Assembly: GCA_021737785.1 (NCBI GenBank)
Contig: JAIPDI010000049.1
Coordinates: 1-39,502, forward strand
DNA: 39,502 nucleotides
Origin: Deltaproteobacteria bacterium
Lineage (GTDB): Bacteria > Desulfobacterota > DSM-4660 > Desulfatiglandales > Desulfatiglandaceae
Direction: 5' to 3'
A program made the translations under genes and the position numbers. Under the pieces are notes generated by a model, which was given only the letters and a program-made list of their open reading frames with translations, did not search any database and was not told the DNA's origin. Shown here in pieces: positions 6,071 through 39,502 of this stretch. Every line of letters starts with the position of its first letter. Positions within the stretch are counted from its first letter, which is position 1.

Positions 6071-6151
6071 AAAAAGTTGCAATCATTGTCAATGCCGAAC
6101 GCATCGGCTTCACCCCAAACACTGTTCTTAATTTTTTCGCCAACGGCCCCT

Positions 6152-7606
6152 ATGACACCGACTCAGAAACACACGGAAAAACAAGGAAGGCAGTTCCGGC
6201 TGGTTAAATTCTTTGCCTACGCAAGCTTCATCGTTTTGATTATCTTCAGTTTTCCATTTTCTATGGTCATCTCCCGGCAGGCAAAAGACATCCTGATGAA
6301 GAGCTATGAAAATTATGCCCTTCTTCTGGGGGAAAACCTGAATTATCAGGTGTTTCAAAACTTTGTACTCCCTGTAACCAGCCAGTTCGGCAAAATCAGG
6401 CTGAGGGAGGAATTTCAATATGAGTTGATGGATCGTATCGTCAGGAACACCACCCACAGCTTCAAGATAGATCTGGTCAATATCTACGATATCAATAACG
6501 ACGTGATCGCGTACAGTACCGATCCGAGTCTCCTGGGCAAAAAAGTACGGGAGAGCTTAGGGTACAAAAAGGCCGTCATGGGAGAGAATTCCTCCGGGCT
6601 GATATCCGGCGGGGATACCCCCCTCTGGGGTCTGGGTATTGAAAAGATGGGGGGGGAGAAGAAGCTGCGGACCTACATCCCCTTCACGGGAATCGGCCCC
6701 TTCCTGGGGGATACCGGATATGTGCTGGGCGTCTTCGAACTGATCCAGGATCTGAGCGAGGAATTCAAATCCGTCATTCGGTTTCAGTACCTTACATTCG
6801 GGCTTTCGATCCTGATCATGGGCATGATCTTTATTGCCCTTCTTCTGATCGTCCGTAAGGCCGAGAATATCATCGATGAGCGCGCCAGGCAACAGCGGGA
6901 ACTCGAGGAGCAATTGCACCATGCAGAGAGACTGGCTGCATTGGGCGAAATGGTTGCGGGGGTCTCCCATGAGATCAGAAACCCCTTGGGCATTATCCGA
7001 AGCACCGCAGAGCTGTTGGGATCCATGCCCGGCGCAGAAGACTCCACGACCCGGCTCACGAAGCTGATTATAGAAGAATCCGGCAGGCTTAACGATATTG
7101 TCACCGAATTTCTGGACTATGCCCGGCCCATGACGCCCAAGTTTCAGAATGCCGACCTCAGACAAATCCTGGAGAGAACATTTCTCTTTCTGGGACCGGA
7201 ACTCGACAAAAATGGGATTTCCCTTCAGAACAATCTCGGCCATCGCTCCCTGGAACTCCGGGCAGACCCGGAAAAGCTCTACCGGTCGCTTCTCAACATC
7301 TTTTTAAACGCCATTCAGTCCATGCCGAACGGGGGCGAGATCACGGTGCATGTGACGGAGGAGAAAGACGACCATTATTTACTTAAGATTGCAGACACCG
7401 GCACCGGGATCAGCGAAACGGACCTGAAAAAGATCTTCAATCCTTTTTTCAGTACCAAGGAGAAGGGGACGGGCCTCGGGCTGTCCATCGTCCGCAATAT
7501 CATTGAGGGGCATAACGGAAAGATATGGATAGAGAGCCGGGTGGAGGGTTCCCAGGATGGAACACCCTCGGGAACAGAGGTGATGATCAGACTCCCTGTG
7601 AAGTGA
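6152..7606 (+). CDS. Membrane sensor histidine kinase (NtrB/ZraS-like)
   Basis: About 484 residues. An N-terminal membrane helix (about 17-38, FFAYASFIVLIIFSFPFSMVIS) and a second at about 210-235 (LTFGLSILIMGMIFIALLLIV) bracket a periplasmic sensor region of about 170 residues containing a PDC/Cache-like stretch (NIYDINNDVIAYSTDPSLLGK). A short coiled coil follows, then HisKA with the phospho-acceptor H273 in GVSHEIRNPLG. The HATPase domain has the N box (NIFLNAIQSM), DTGTGIS, FNPFFSTKEKGTGLGLSIV and a final Gly-rich strand. No ribosome-binding site is evident. ATG 6152 was chosen; ATG 6092 in the same frame is possible. It pairs with the NtrC-type regulator 140 bases downstream. The signal sensed is unknown. 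Confidence 0.9.
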   Translation: MTPTQKHTEKQGRQFRLVKFFAYASFIVLIIFSFPFSMVISRQAKDILMKSYENYALLLGENLNYQVFQNFVLPVTSQFGKIRLREEFQYELMDRIVRNTTHSFKIDLVNIYDINNDVIAYSTDPSLLGKKVRESLGYKKAVMGENSSGLISGGDTPLWGLGIEKMGGEKKLRTYIPFTGIGPFLGDTGYVLGVFELIQDLSEEFKSVIRFQYLTFGLSILIMGMIFIALLLIVRKAENIIDERARQQRELEEQLHHAERLAALGEMVAGVSHEIRNPLGIIRSTAELLGSMPGAEDSTTRLTKLIIEESGRLNDIVTEFLDYARPMTPKFQNADLRQILERTFLFLGPELDKNGISLQNNLGHRSLELRADPEKLYRSLLNIFLNAIQSMPNGGEITVHVTEEKDDHYLLKIADTGTGISETDLKKIFNPFFSTKEKGTGLGLSIVRNIIEGHNGKIWIESRVEGSQDGTPSGTEVMIRLPVK

Positions 7607-7746: not shown

Positions 7747-9111
7747 ATGGAAACAATCCTGATTGTAGATGACGAAAAAAACTATTTGGTGGTACTCGAG
7801 GCCCTCCTGGGAGCGGAAGGCTATGAGATCGTTACTGCCAATGACGCCAAGGCCGGGCTTGCTACGGTGCGTGAAGCAGACCTGGACCTGGTGATAACCG
7901 ATATGAAAATGCCGGGCATGAGCGGCATGGAACTCCTCGAGGCGTGCAAGAAGATAAAGCCGGACCTGCCGGTCATCATGATGACGGCATACGGAACCAT
8001 TGAGATGGCCGTGGCCGCGATGAAGAGGCATGCCTATGATTACATCCAGAAGCCCTTTGAAAATGAGCAATTGAAGCTGACCATAAGAAAGGCCCTTGAA
8101 AACTATCGGCTTATCAAGCAAAACAGGCTTTTGACAGAGGCCCTTTCAGACCGCTTCAGGTACGGTAAGCTGATTGGAAAAAGTAAGCCGATGCGCCAGG
8201 TGTACGATCTTATTGAAAAGGTCTCCAGGTCCAAGGCATCCGTGCTCATTACCGGCCCTTCCGGGACCGGAAAGGAACTCATCGCCAAGGCCATCCACTA
8301 TCATGGCCAGAGAAAGGACCGGCCGTTTATTTCCATCAATTGCGGCGCGTTGACGGAAACCCTGCTGGAAAGCGAACTCTTCGGGCATGAAAAAGGGGCC
8401 TTTACCGGGGCGGTGGCCATGAAAAAGGGGCGGTTTGAACTGGCCGATGAGGGAACCCTCTTTTTGGACGAAGTGGGTGATATGCCGCCTTCCCTCCAGG
8501 TCAAGCTCTTGCGGGTGCTCCAGGAGATGGCGTTTGAACGCGTCGGCGGCACACGGACGATCCAGGTGGATGTGCGGGTTCTTGCTGCTTCCAACAGAAA
8601 CATCAAGGAGGATGTCATGAATGGGGTCTTTCGTGAAGACCTCTATTACCGCCTCAATGTCATTCATATCGACGTCCCTTCTCTCCAGGAAAGGACGGAC
8701 GATATCCCGCTCCTGGTAAGGCATTTCATTCAAAAATTTCATGCCGGAGACAGTGATGACGCCATCCAGCTGAGCCCCGAGGCCTGGAAGGCCCTTTACG
8801 CCTATCCCTGGCCCGGGAATGTGAGGGAGCTGGAGAATGTCATTGAGAGGGCCGTGGTCCTCCATACGGCCGGGCAGATCACGGTGGATGATCTCCCGGC
8901 AGAGCTGACCGGAGCAGAAACCCAATTCGATGTGGAGAGATTCATTCCGCCCGACATCCCCTTGCAGAAGGCCCTGGAAGAAATAGAGGAACGCCTGATA
9001 AGGAGGGCCCTGATCCGGTGCGACAATGTCCAGGCCCATGCGGCCAGGGACCTGGGGATCACCAAAAGCCTTATCCAGCACAAGATGAAAAAGTACAATA
9101 TCACTGTGTAG
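7747..9111 (+). CDS. NtrC-family sigma-54-dependent response regulator
   Basis: 454 residues. The receiver domain (1-120) has DD at 8-9, phospho-acceptor D52 in ITDMKMPG, T80-type TAYG and K102-type QKPF. The AAA+ sigma-54 activation domain (about 140-380) has Walker A GPSGTGKE and GAFTGA at 217-222, the loop that contacts sigma-54. Further motifs are FLDEVGDMP (Walker B) and FREDLYYRLNV. The C-terminal Fis-type helix-turn-helix is EERLIRRALIRCDNVQAHAARDLGITKSLIQHKMKKYN. It is the partner of the upstream histidine kinase. Its stop codon lies one base before the first enhancer-like dyad of the downstream sRNA cassette, so it is the natural candidate to activate those promoters. That regulatory link is inference. 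Confidence 0.95.
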   Translation: METILIVDDEKNYLVVLEALLGAEGYEIVTANDAKAGLATVREADLDLVITDMKMPGMSGMELLEACKKIKPDLPVIMMTAYGTIEMAVAAMKRHAYDYIQKPFENEQLKLTIRKALENYRLIKQNRLLTEALSDRFRYGKLIGKSKPMRQVYDLIEKVSRSKASVLITGPSGTGKELIAKAIHYHGQRKDRPFISINCGALTETLLESELFGHEKGAFTGAVAMKKGRFELADEGTLFLDEVGDMPPSLQVKLLRVLQEMAFERVGGTRTIQVDVRVLAASNRNIKEDVMNGVFREDLYYRLNVIHIDVPSLQERTDDIPLLVRHFIQKFHAGDSDDAIQLSPEAWKALYAYPWPGNVRELENVIERAVVLHTAGQITVDDLPAELTGAETQFDVERFIPPDIPLQKALEEIEERLIRRALIRCDNVQAHAARDLGITKSLIQHKMKKYNITV

Positions 9112-9112
9112 C

Positions 9113-9207
9113 GGTACAAAATATGGTACCCGAAGTTATCTTTATATCTTAAGCGGTTACCTAAAAGATCCGTTTTTCGGGCAGGTATGGGTACAATAAA
9201 TTGGACT
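9113..9207 (+). promoter_or_regulatory. Enhancer-like region of sRNA cassette 1 (two dyads)
   Basis: Dyad 1 (9113-9130) reads GGTAC-AAAATATG-GTACC. Dyad 2 (9190-9207) reads GGTAC-AATAAATT-GGACT. Between them is a block conserved with cassette 2, TAAAAGATCCGTTTTTCGGGC in two parts (TAAAAGATCC 9162-9171 and GTTTTTCGGGC 9172-9182). The dyad centres lie about 210 and 133 bp upstream of the predicted transcription start, a normal distance for enhancer-binding proteins of the NtrC family. Confidence 0.65.
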
Positions 9208-9305: not shown

Positions 9306-9322
9306 TGGCAAGCCTCTTGCAG
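9306..9322 (+). promoter_or_regulatory. Sigma-54 promoter of sRNA 1
   Basis: The core TTGGCAAGCCTCTTGCAG (9305-9322) has GG at 9307-9308 and GC at 9319-9320, separated by exactly 10 bases. This is the -24/-12 hallmark, matching the TTGGCAC-N5-TTGCA consensus with one change. The predicted start is near G9332. The sequence is identical in cassette 2. Confidence 0.8.
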
Positions 9323-9331
9323 TATCAATAA

Positions 9332-9404
9332 GGCAAATAGCAATACTCAATTACTCTTTCCTCCTAAGTAAAACCGACCTCGCCTTGCGGGGTCGGTTTT
9401 TTTT
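9332..9404 (+). ncRNA. Predicted sigma-54-dependent small RNA 1
   Basis: About 73 nt from the predicted start to the end of the T run. The 5' part (GGCAAATAGCAATACTCAA) looks unstructured. A 5-bp hairpin, TTACT/AGTAA, has an 11-base loop CTTTCCTCCTA exposing CCTCCT, complementary to Shine-Dalgarno sequences. The terminator hairpin (9373-9397) follows directly. It is nearly identical to sRNA 2 at 9784. No matching known RNA family is recognised. Likely a trans-acting, translation-blocking sRNA; that role is inference. Confidence 0.7.
9373..9404 (+). terminator. Intrinsic terminator of sRNA 1
   Basis: The 11-bp stem pairs ACCGACCTCGC (9373-9383) with GCGGGGTCGGT (9387-9397), with a CTT loop and one T-G wobble. 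Eight T follow or overlap (9397-9404). Confidence 0.93.
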
Positions 9405-9565: not shown

Positions 9566-9660
9566 GGTAAAAAATATGGTACCCGAATATATCATAGAAT
9601 TTCGGGAGGTTATTTAAAAGATCCGTTTTTCGGGCGTGAATGGGTACAATAAATTGGACT
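9566..9660 (+). promoter_or_regulatory. Enhancer-like region of sRNA cassette 2 (two dyads)
   Basis: Dyad 1 (9566-9583) reads GGTAA-AAAATATG-GTACC. Dyad 2 (9643-9660) is identical to that of cassette 1. The distance between dyad centres is 77 bp in both cassettes. The middle conserved block (9615-9635) is also at the same offset. Confidence 0.65.
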
Positions 9661-9757: not shown

Positions 9758-9774
9758 TGGCAAGCCTCTTGCAG
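9758..9774 (+). promoter_or_regulatory. Sigma-54 promoter of sRNA 2
   Basis: GG at 9759-9760 and GC at 9771-9772 are separated by 10 bases, in the same TTGGCAAGCCTCTTGCAG core (9757-9774) as cassette 1. The predicted start is near G9784. Confidence 0.8.
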
Positions 9775-9783
9775 TATCGATAA

Positions 9784-9855
9784 GGCAAATAGTAAAACTC
9801 AATTACTCTTTCCTCCTAAGTAAACCAGCCCTGCCTTGCGGGGCTGGTTTTTTTT
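9784..9855 (+). ncRNA. Predicted sigma-54-dependent small RNA 2
   Basis: About 72 nt, the second copy of the sRNA. The hairpin TTACT/AGTAA with the CTTTCCTCCTA loop is unchanged. Differences from copy 1 are confined to a few 5' bases and to compensated positions in the terminator stem. It lies just upstream of the 3' end of convergent era. Confidence 0.7.
9824..9855 (+). terminator. Intrinsic terminator of sRNA 2
   Basis: ACCAGCCCTGC (9824-9834) pairs with GCGGGGCTGGT (9838-9848), loop CTT, with T9848-9855. Compared with copy 1, pairs G9376-C9394 and A9377-T9393 become A9827-T9845 and G9828-C9844, so pairing is kept. Read in reverse, the same stem could also stop era transcripts, though only three T follow there. 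Confidence 0.93.
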
Positions 9856-9892: not shown

Positions 9893-10777
9893 TCAATACC
9901 CTAACCGCCTCAATGCCCGCGTATCCCGGGACCAGTTTTTTTCCACCCTCACCGTCAGATCTAAATAGACCCGCAGCCCAAAGATCTTTTCCAGGTCCAG
10001 CCGGGCGGATCGCCCGATCGCCTGGATCATCTTCCCTCTCCGGCCGATGAAAATCCCCTTTTGAGAATCCGTCTCCACGTGAATCCGGGCTGAAATCATC
10101 AACACCCCCTTCTTTGGCATGTCATCGATCTTCTCCACGGTCACCGCGGATGCATAGGGCAATTCCTGCCGCAACTGAAGATAGATCTTTTCCCGGATCA
10201 CCTCTGATATCAAGAAGTTCTCCGGCTGATCGGACGCCATATCCTCCGGGAAAAACTGGGGTCCGGGTCTTAATCGGGACCTCAGTTCATTCATGAGGAG
10301 ATCCACATTGTCGCCCTTCAAGGCGGAGATGGGGATGATCGCATCAAAGGGATATCTCTTTCCGTAGTCTGCCATCAGGGGGAGGAGCATTTCCTTGGGT
10401 CCCTTATCGATCTTGTTGATGAGGAGAAGACACGGCCTCTTCATCCCCTGCAAGTTCTTCAGGATGGGTGAGACCGCGGCCCCCTCCATCTCGCCCAGCT
10501 GGATCATCACCAGGAGGATGTCCACCTCCTGAAAAACCGCAAGGGCAGACGCCACCATGCTCTTGTGGAGCGGGGTCCGGGTCCGGTGAATCCCGGGCGT
10601 ATCAATGAACACCATCTGAACTCCCGCCTCATTATGGATGCCGAGGATGCGGTTCCGCGTGGTCTGGGGCTTGGGCGACACTATCGTCACCTTCCTCCCC
10701 AGAATACGATTGAGGAGCGTGGATTTGCCCACGTTCGGGGGGCCGATGATCCCGATATAACCGGACGAAAACGTCAT
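9893..10777 (-). CDS. era: GTPase Era
   Basis: 294 residues, the usual Era length. It binds 16S rRNA and assists 30S subunit maturation. The G domain shows G1 GPPNVGKS (11-18), a switch I Thr region (KPQTTRNRILGI), G3 DTPG in IDTPGIHRT, and G4 NKID. The C-terminal KH domain contains IFIGRRGKMIQAIGRSARLDLEKIFG, with the GxxG-type RNA-binding loop, and ends in VRVEKNWSRDTRALRRLGY. The start ATG overlaps the stop of the upstream radical SAM gene (shared bases 10774-10777), so translation is probably coupled. It is the last gene of the rnc-rSAM-era cluster and converges on sRNA 2. Confidence 0.97.
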   Translation of the reverse strand: MTFSSGYIGIIGPPNVGKSTLLNRILGRKVTIVSPKPQTTRNRILGIHNEAGVQMVFIDTPGIHRTRTPLHKSMVASALAVFQEVDILLVMIQLGEMEGAAVSPILKNLQGMKRPCLLLINKIDKGPKEMLLPLMADYGKRYPFDAIIPISALKGDNVDLLMNELRSRLRPGPQFFPEDMASDQPENFLISEVIREKIYLQLRQELPYASAVTVEKIDDMPKKGVLMISARIHVETDSQKGIFIGRRGKMIQAIGRSARLDLEKIFGLRVYLDLTVRVEKNWSRDTRALRRLGY

Positions 10778-11915: not shown

Positions 11916-12653
11916 TCATTTTTGAAGCGCTCGCTCCTTTAGAACGAACAAGGCCTGCCGCGCCGCGTTCTGCTCGGCCTCCTTCTTGCTTCTTCCTTCA
12001 CCCTCTGTCAGGGGTTTTCCCATCAAACTCAAGGAGACAAGAAACGACCTGTCATGGGCCGGACCTGTCTCCTGGATGAGCCGGTATCTGGGGAGCGTCT
12101 TGCAGGTCTGCTGGGTATATTCCTGAAGCAGACTCTTGAAATCATGGACCCGTTCCCTGCTCGCCACCCGCTCCAACAGGGGTGAAAAGAGCTCCTCTAT
12201 CATCCTCTGTGCCCGGTCGAACCCTCCATCCAGATAGACAGCCCCGATGAGGGCCTCAGTGGTATCGGCGAGGATGGAAGGCTTCTCCCTGCCGAGGGTC
12301 TGTTCTTCACCCTTGCCCAAAAGGAGATAATCTCCCAATCCGAGGCCCTGCGCAACCTCGTAAAGGCCGGCTTCATCCACCAGCATGGCCCTGAACTTGG
12401 ACAGCTCTCCTTCTCTGGCATCTTCAAAATGGCGCATCAGGAGATGGCTGACGGCCAGATCCAGCACGGCATCTCCCAAAAACTCCAGCCGTTCGTTATC
12501 CTCCAGTCCCGGCCACACCTGCTCATTCACATAGGAGGCATGGCAGAACGCCCGGACGAGCAGCTCAGGGGCGTGGAAGGTGTACCCCAACCGCTCCTCA
12601 AGGCGTCTGAATCCTGTTTCCAGAAACAATGATTCTACTCTCTCTTTCTTCAT
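11916..12653 (-). CDS. rnc: Ribonuclease III
   Basis: 245 residues. It cleaves double-stranded RNA in rRNA and mRNA processing. The nuclease domain has the signature NERLEFLGDAVLDL (53-66), the second acidic cluster DTTEALIGAVYLDGG, and the helix RAMLVDEAGLYEVAQ. The double-stranded RNA-binding domain follows (about 165-240: DFKSLLQEYTQQ, then SLMGKPLTEGEGRSKKEAEQNAARQAL). Start taken at ATG 12651-12653, preceded by AGGGG; an in-frame TTG lies 5 codons upstream. It is first of the rnc-rSAM-era group, 122 bases upstream of the radical SAM gene. Confidence 0.97.
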   Translation of the reverse strand: MKKERVESLFLETGFRRLEERLGYTFHAPELLVRAFCHASYVNEQVWPGLEDNERLEFLGDAVLDLAVSHLLMRHFEDAREGELSKFRAMLVDEAGLYEVAQGLGLGDYLLLGKGEEQTLGREKPSILADTTEALIGAVYLDGGFDRAQRMIEELFSPLLERVASRERVHDFKSLLQEYTQQTCKTLPRYRLIQETGPAHDRSFLVSLSLMGKPLTEGEGRSKKEAEQNAARQALFVLKERALQK

Positions 12654-12777
12654 CCCCTGGCTTCTCAATCAAATTTGATCACCAATTCCATTCCATTGCT
12701 GTGGAAAAACCGATGCCGAAGTTTATAATAATCCGCTTCCCTTTTTCAAGTTCAGAAAGTCCCGGGTAAGATTTGCG

Positions 12778-39366: not shown

Positions 39367-39502
<136 letters not shown>

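What the first reader, a model, noticed from the sequence alone, without database searches (positions are those of the whole stretch)
9348..9371. sRNA hairpin loop displays an anti-Shine-Dalgarno CCUCCU
In both copies the stem TTACT/AGTAA holds the loop CTTTCCTCCTA, unchanged, while flanking bases differ. An exposed CCUCCU would pair with ribosome-binding sites (AGGAGG), as in the CUCCU-loop sRNAs known from alphaproteobacteria and Gram-positives. This suggests broad translational repression.
Basis: partly seen in the sequence, partly recalled or inferred. Interest (0 to 1): 0.75.

Follow-up and report, generated by a model that had tools for sequence, protein, structure and literature searches.

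The report
Sigma-54-driven porin-silencing small RNA pair
Two tandem copies of a small RNA gene, apparently switched on by the two-component regulator encoded next door, carry a strand that is the near-exact antisense of the translation start of the bacterium's major outer-membrane porins, so they most likely shut porin synthesis down in a group of bacteria with no detectable Hfq.

Summary
The motif is real and duplicated (9356-9366, 9808-9818; 0.02 expected), but the CCUCCU-loop hairpin is not supported: its five pairs form in only 3 of 28 homologues. CCUCCU lies in a mostly single-stranded linker just before a terminator whose stem covaries. Each copy is a complete gene: two palindromic enhancer sites, a sigma-54 -24/-12 promoter (TGGCA-N6-TTGC, invariant in 28/28), a ~73-nt RNA and a terminator, directly downstream of a histidine kinase and an NtrC-type response regulator. 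The sRNA is found in 57/61 relatives and 49/297 genomes sampled across the phylum; Hfq was found in 0/61. Among 1,563 own-genome genes the three best duplexes are a porin, an OmpA-type protein and an OprB porin. Porins found by protein profile pair best with their own genome's sRNA (swap test p = 5e-5), up to 22 contiguous pairs covering Shine-Dalgarno, spacer and AUG, with compensatory changes. So anti-SD pairing is supported, but not hairpin display or broad repression: this looks like a dedicated porin-repressing sRNA, a functional counterpart of RybB/MicA/FoxI under sigma-54/two-component control. No matching family was found in Rfam or the papers searched. Everything here is computational.

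The parts
6077..7606 (+). Membrane histidine kinase (HisKA, HATPase_c; C-terminal half most like AtoS/ZraS), presumed sensor of the circuit
   Evidence: Pfam, NCBIfam; synteny
7747..9111 (+). NtrC-family sigma-54-dependent response regulator (receiver, AAA+ with GAFTGA, Fis-type HTH), presumed activator of both sRNA genes
   Evidence: Pfam, NCBIfam; next to the sRNA in nearly all loci of the family at about 70-92% identity
9113..9130 (.). Distal enhancer palindrome, copy 1 (GGTACAAAATATGGTACC), -193 from the promoter
9190..9207 (.). Proximal enhancer, copy 1 (GGTACAATAAATTGGACT), -116 from the promoter
9306..9320 (+). Sigma-54 -24/-12 promoter, copy 1 (TGGCAAGCCTCTTGC)
   Evidence: invariant TGGCA-N6-TTGC in 28/28 homologues
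9332..9404 (+). sRNA copy 1, about 73 nt (start inferred 12 nt after the -12 C; end at the T-run)
   Evidence: CM hit 98 bits
9350..9367 (+). Antisense core of copy 1, ATTACTCTTTCCTCCTAA; contains the reported motif 9356-9366
9370..9404 (+). Intrinsic terminator of copy 1
   Evidence: fold; covariation
9566..9583 (.). Distal enhancer, copy 2 (GGTAAAAAATATGGTACC)
9643..9660 (.). Proximal enhancer, copy 2 (GGTACAATAAATTGGACT)
9758..9772 (+). Sigma-54 promoter, copy 2 (TGGCAAGCCTCTTGC)
9784..9855 (+). sRNA copy 2, about 72 nt
9802..9819 (+). Antisense core of copy 2
9822..9855 (+). Intrinsic terminator of copy 2
9893..10777 (-). Era GTPase, convergent neighbour; a syntenic marker, not a part of the mechanism
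   Evidence: Pfam; synteny

Best explanation
A stand-alone, trans-acting small RNA in two tandem copies. The adjacent histidine kinase phosphorylates the NtrC-type regulator, which binds the two palindromes (GGTACAAWATWTTGTACC) about 195 and 116 bp upstream of each sigma-54 promoter and switches the sRNA on. The ~73-nt RNA exposes AUUACUCUUUCCUCCUAA in a linker before its terminator. This pairs with the whole initiation region of porin mRNAs (UUAGGAGGAAAGAGUAAUG: SD, spacer and AUG) and blocks 30S binding, lowering synthesis of abundant porins without Hfq. Shown by sequence: gene anatomy, conservation, synteny, porin complementarity and its coevolution. Inferred: regulator binding, transcription, direction of the effect (repression) and the signal (probably envelope or osmotic stress).
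For: Anatomy and conservation: promoter and core invariant in 28/28, spacer variable, terminator helix covarying. Regulator linkage: RR-sRNA adjacency in nearly all loci of the family, usually followed by era, and RR-sRNA again in Desulfatibacillum at 56% RR identity; enhancer pair at near-fixed spacing of about 79 bp. Distribution: 57/61 relatives, 49/297 in the phylum. Targets: own-genome scan of 1,563 genes, top three = porin (-32.3 kcal/mol), OmpA-type lipoprotein, OprB porin. In relatives the nine most extended matches among 54 sites all belong to signal-peptide porin-like proteins; exported vs other p = 5e-4. Porins found by protein search pair 16-22 contiguous nt with their own sRNA in most genomes; swap test own -26.3 vs others -22.5 kcal/mol, p = 5e-5, and 1.5e-4 within groups. 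Compensatory changes: G017/G034 sRNA ATCACTC with target GAGTGATG; G020 CCTGGAAG with CTTTCAGG; G047/G049 CCTAAAGAAA with TTTCTTTAGG; G062 and G112 follow their own divergent cores. Weak CM hits elsewhere in relatives fall repeatedly on the antisense strand of porin start sites. Hfq 0/61 with working positive controls.
Against: No transcriptomic or proteomic data. Some porins pair poorly with the local sRNA (G011, G051); G056 pairs better with foreign sRNAs. The own-genome top energy alone is only moderately unusual (1 of 100 flank-shuffled control RNAs reaches it), and signal-peptide enrichment fades beyond the top 10. Strong porin ribosome sites could partly explain complementarity at AGGAGG. 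An exact-compensation test for the CTCTTTTCTCC variant was negative (G-U pairing tolerates the change). In four divergent genomes the only exact matches were the sRNA itself. Phylogenetic non-independence inflates the permutation p-values. Several genomes with the sRNA gave no hit to these porin profiles.
Confidence: 0.82

Rival explanations
1. Broad-spectrum anti-Shine-Dalgarno RNA that represses many mRNAs through CCUCCU.
For: Core contains CCUCCU and is predicted mostly unpaired; SD-containing genes form moderate duplexes.
Against: No genome-wide excess of complementary sites; the duplex-energy list falls to background after three genes; conservation extends through UCUUU and often into flanks that match porin spacers and upstream bases rather than SD alone; lineages change the core together with porin ribosome sites; several homologues have lost perfect CCUCCU (UCUCC, CCCCC).
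Confidence: 0.1
2. The RNA acts mainly as a decoy for an RNA-binding protein or the ribosome, and the porin match is a by-product of strong ribosome sites.
For: Pyrimidine-rich single-stranded core; CbrAB-CrcZ is a known sigma-54 precedent for a titrating sRNA next to its regulator (own knowledge).
Against: Does not predict own-sRNA/own-porin coevolution or the compensatory changes upstream of the SD; one motif copy per RNA; Hfq not found.
Confidence: 0.05
3. The RNA pairs with porin mRNAs but its main role is target stabilisation or recruitment of RNase III for cleavage, rather than occlusion of the start site.
For: Duplexes of 17-22 bp approach RNase III substrates, and an RNase III gene lies in the same neighbourhood (11916-12668), though it is housekeeping.
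Against: Pairing covers SD and AUG, which on established knowledge blocks initiation; pairing downstream of the start is limited in this family.
Confidence: 0.1
4. Cis-acting leader, attenuator or small ORF rather than a stand-alone sRNA.
For: None beyond its intergenic position.
Against: Own terminator, next gene convergent (era), and no conserved reading frame: the spacer varies freely in length and sequence.
Confidence: 0.02

Closest known systems
RybB / MicA (sigma-E-dependent omp-repressing sRNAs, PMC1804206)
   Same: Envelope-directed sRNAs that down-regulate abundant outer-membrane protein mRNAs by pairing at or near the start site (abstract and own knowledge).
   Different: Controlled by sigma-E and using Hfq; here sigma-54 with a two-component regulator, no Hfq found, different seed, unrelated sequence.
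FoxI / FoxJ of Fusobacterium nucleatum (PMC11005410)
   Same: Repress an abundant porin (FomA) in a bacterium lacking Hfq and ProQ, with a C-rich seed; that of FoxI lies in a linear stretch.
   Different: sigma-E controlled, different phylum, no sequence relation known; the present core matches SD, spacer and AUG.
VrrA of Vibrio cholerae (PMC2628432)
   Same: Represses ompA translation by pairing with the 5' region; Hfq not stringently required.
   Different: 140 nt, sigma-E dependent, different organism and seed.
Dv_sRNA2 downstream of response regulator DVU0679 in Desulfovibrio vulgaris (PMC3333781)
   Same: An sRNA that is the target of a regulator encoded directly upstream, in a sulfate reducer; function unknown.
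   Different: Sequence relation not tested: the DVU0679 locus was not available here. Reported orthologues are in Desulfovibrio, Desulfotomaculum and Symbiobacterium.
CrcZ (CbrAB), Qrr (LuxO), GlmY/GlmZ (QseF/GlrR)
   Same: Sigma-54-driven sRNAs activated by NtrC-type response regulators; CrcZ also lies downstream of its regulator genes (own knowledge).
   Different: Other targets and mechanisms, mostly tied to Hfq or adaptor proteins; none is a dedicated porin antisense.
AbcR1/2 and NfeR1 anti-SD sRNAs of alphaproteobacteria (PMC8844928)
   Same: Use anti-SD motifs to block translation; AbcR1/2 are tandem copies.
   Different: CUCCUCCC in a hairpin loop (AbcR aSD1), transporter targets, no sigma-54 promoter known; here a linear core and porin targets.

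Membership tests
Any described RNA family (Rfam 15) | Covariance-model match at 9332-9404 or 9784-9855 | tested here: not met
   no match there even at E <= 1
CUCCU-loop (cuckoo/AbcR-type) anti-SD sRNAs | Anti-SD motif displayed in a conserved hairpin loop | tested here: not met
   stem 5/5 in 3 of 28 homologues, no covariation
CUCCU-loop (cuckoo/AbcR-type) anti-SD sRNAs | Accessible anti-SD sequence complementary to ribosome-binding sites | tested here: met
   CCUCCU unpaired probability 0.67-1.0
Sigma-54/NtrC-controlled sRNAs (CrcZ, Qrr, GlmY kind) | -24/-12 promoter with upstream enhancer sites | tested here: met
   TGGCA-N6-TTGC 28/28; paired palindromes
Sigma-54/NtrC-controlled sRNAs (CrcZ, Qrr, GlmY kind) | Transcription requires RpoN and the cognate regulator | not testable with these tools
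   needs mutants or footprinting; only linkage shown
Omp-repressing sRNAs (RybB/MicA/FoxI kind) | Conserved complementarity to start regions of abundant outer-membrane protein mRNAs | tested here: met
Omp-repressing sRNAs (RybB/MicA/FoxI kind) | Control by the sigma-E envelope-stress response | tested here: not met
   the promoter is sigma-54 type, invariant
Omp-repressing sRNAs (RybB/MicA/FoxI kind) | Demonstrated lowering of porin protein | not testable with these tools
   no expression data
Hfq-dependent sRNAs | Hfq encoded in the genome | tested here: not met
   PF17209 in 0/61 genomes, positive controls detected
Dv_sRNA2 (DVU0679 target) | Sequence homology of sRNA and regulator | not tested
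   locus not fetched; only the paper's description read

The most novel reading that the evidence does not exclude
An ancient, phylum-wide porin-control circuit of Desulfobacterota: a sigma-54/two-component-driven sRNA that works without Hfq by being a whole-start-site antisense, and that has coevolved with successive porin families in different lineages, convergent with the sigma-E sRNAs of Enterobacteria and Fusobacteria.
Probability: 0.5. Interest if true: 0.75.

Novelty: new variant of a known kind. Interest (0 to 1): 0.62.

Why it matters
Post-transcriptional control in Desulfobacterota is almost unexplored and the genomes tested here have no detectable Hfq. This gives a sensor-regulator pair, a promoter, a ~73-nt RNA and specific porin targets with compensatory changes, so RNA-only control of outer-membrane permeability becomes directly testable. 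It also suggests that an RNA brake on porins evolved again under a different sigma factor, supporting the idea that such a brake is a general need of two-membrane bacteria.

Tried and rejected
Hairpin display of CCUCCU: rejected. Broad repression by site counting: no excess and no enrichment beyond the top ~10 duplexes. Compensation for the CTCTTTTCTCC variant: few hits, no trend. First covariation test with AGGAGGAAAAN0-3GATGAA looked positive until four of five divergent hits proved to be the antisense of the sRNA itself; only the Desulfatibacillum porin stood. A ZraP-like gene seemed to share the enhancer motif, but it has its own divergent kinase/regulator pair and a different palindrome, so it is not counted as a co-target. 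Pattern hits outside Desulfobacterota include many coding-region matches and are not counted as homologues. Cis-leader or peptide reading rejected on anatomy. Rfam gave nothing at the locus. A first, larger duplex run timed out and was repeated with 100 controls.

Full report
OBSERVATION. CTTTCCTCCTA occurs twice in the window, 9356-9366 and 9808-9818, with 0.02 expected. The two occurrences are the centres of two copies of one gene: the copies are 91% identical over 103 nt and share conserved upstream blocks. The TTACT/AGTAA stem is present in both window copies but is worth only -0.4 kcal/mol.

HAIRPIN OR LINKER. In 28 homologues the five proposed pairs all form in 3, and pair counting shows no support beyond shifted controls. 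The helix that is conserved is the terminator directly downstream: 10 of 15 pairs have changes on both sides, 42 such cells against 14 in shuffles. With the RNA started at the inferred +1, CCUCCU is predicted unpaired with probability 0.67-1.0. So the motif is a mostly single-stranded linker core. The invariant part is CTCTTTCCTCCT plus near-invariant flanking A residues; the 5' spacer varies freely.

GENE ANATOMY. Upstream of each copy lies TGGCAAGCCTCTTGC, a sigma-54 -24/-12 promoter, invariant at TGGCA and TTGC in all 28 aligned homologues. About 195 and 116 bp further up lie two copies of a palindrome GGTACAAWATWTTGTACC, spaced about 79 bp apart in nearly all loci; the window copies are somewhat degenerate versions. 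Counting +1 as 12 nt after the -12 C gives RNAs of 73 and 72 nt (9332-9404, 9784-9855). Start sites are inferred, not measured.

NEIGHBOURS. 7747-9111 encodes an NtrC-type response regulator (receiver, sigma-54 AAA+ domain with GAFTGA, Fis HTH) and 6077-7606 its histidine kinase. The order kinase, regulator, sRNA, then era on the opposite strand is kept across the family. In a distant lineage (Desulfatibacillum alkenivorans, regulator 56% identical) the sRNA again sits just after the regulator gene. In the 1.57 Mb of the genome that was scanned, only the two sRNA copies combine this palindrome with this promoter; a ZraP-like gene first looked like a third case but has its own paralogous system.

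DISTRIBUTION. A covariance model finds the RNA in 57 of 61 relatives and 49 of 297 genomes sampled over the phylum. Rfam has no matching family. Hfq was not found in any of 61 genomes, while the control genomes were positive.

TARGETS IN THE OWN GENOME. 1,563 genes were called in 1.57 Mb and duplexes computed between the sRNA core and each start region. The three best are a porin at C7:38946 (-32.3 kcal/mol, TTTAGGAGGAGAGAGTAAT, 19 contiguous pairs with G-U), an OmpA/VWA-domain lipoprotein (-24.8) and an OprB-family porin (-24.1); the list is then background. Control RNAs with TCCTCC kept and flanks shuffled reach the top energy in 1 of 100 cases, so this alone is suggestive, and enrichment for exported proteins fades beyond the top ten.

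TARGETS ACROSS GENOMES. Sites GGAGGAAAGAGN0-4ATG were collected from relatives without regard to gene function and annotated. Pairing beyond the 11-mer is longest for signal-peptide porin-like proteins: the nine longest of 54 are all of this kind (p = 5e-4 for exported versus other). In the converse, less biased direction, porins were found by protein search and their start sites read afterwards. Most have 16-22 contiguous pairs with their own genome's sRNA. A swap test over 31 start sites and 26 genomes gives own -26.3 and foreign -22.5 kcal/mol (permutation p = 5e-5; 1.5e-4 when swapping only within the window's family and within the rest). Lineages with changed cores show matching changes: G017/G034 ATCACTC with GAGTGATG; G020 CCCCCTGGAAG with CTTTCAGGGAGG (own rank 1 of 26); G047/G049 CCTAAAGAAA with TTTCTTTAGG; G062 and G112 with their own distinct cores. 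The covariance model itself, run on whole genomes, gives as recurrent weak hits the antisense strands of porin start sites. Relatedness of genomes inflates these p-values and is not corrected for.

FUNCTION. Best reading: the kinase/regulator pair switches on the sRNA from sigma-54 promoters, and the sRNA covers SD, spacer and AUG of porin mRNAs and blocks initiation. Shown by sequence: anatomy, conservation, linkage, complementarity, coevolution. Inferred: transcription, regulator binding, repression, signal. The porins resemble, weakly, the Desulfovibrio homotrimeric porin family NF033939, Porin_4 and OprB.

COMPARED WITH WHAT IS KNOWN. It works like RybB/MicA (PMC1804206), VrrA (PMC2628432) and above all FoxI/FoxJ, porin-repressing sRNAs of a bacterium lacking Hfq and ProQ (PMC11005410), but those are under sigma-E. 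Its control resembles CrcZ, Qrr and GlmY (own knowledge). The nearest description in a sulfate reducer is Dv_sRNA2, target of the regulator DVU0679 encoded upstream of it, function unknown (PMC3333781); relation untested. Alphaproteobacterial AbcR uses an anti-SD in a hairpin loop (PMC8844928); that defining feature was tested here and not met. Literature searches returned no description of this RNA in the library held.

VERDICT.

Noticed in passing
window 39367-39437 (-): Group II intron domain V/VI match (Rfam RF00029, 56.8 bits, over the gathering score) at the right edge of the window.
   Followed up: no
own genome C2:165835-169902 (locus L311): A ZraP/Spy-like periplasmic protein gene with its own sigma-54 promoter (TGGCATGGCCATTGC) and palindrome GGATACAAAGTATCC, divergent from a separate kinase/NtrC-type regulator pair: a ZraPSR-like system distinct from the sRNA circuit.
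   Followed up: partly
L478 (G057), L479 (G048), L487 (G052), L475 (G023), L486 (G030): Further CTCTTTCCTCC or CTCTTTTCTCC elements followed by a hairpin and T-run but without a sigma-54 promoter; possibly paralogous sRNAs with the same seed under other promoters.
   Followed up: no
L056, L067, L114, L115, L118, L122, L432, L433, L437: A Syntrophobacteraceae-like subfamily with ACTCTTTCCTCCT and a sigma-54 promoter, in which the terminator loop also looks conserved and C-rich, and no copy of this regulator nearby; it may carry a second seed.
   Followed up: no
L020 (G016), L023 (G012): sRNAs in which the core is partly duplicated within one RNA (ATTACTCTTTAATTACTCTTTCCTCC; CTCTTTCCTCTTTTACTCTTTCCTCC).
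   Followed up: no
L239 (G056), L250 (G017), L252 (G034), L263 (G023): HU-type DNA-binding protein genes repeatedly carry GGAGGAAAGAG ribosome sites, with little pairing beyond the 11-mer; secondary target or coincidence of a strong ribosome site.
   Followed up: partly
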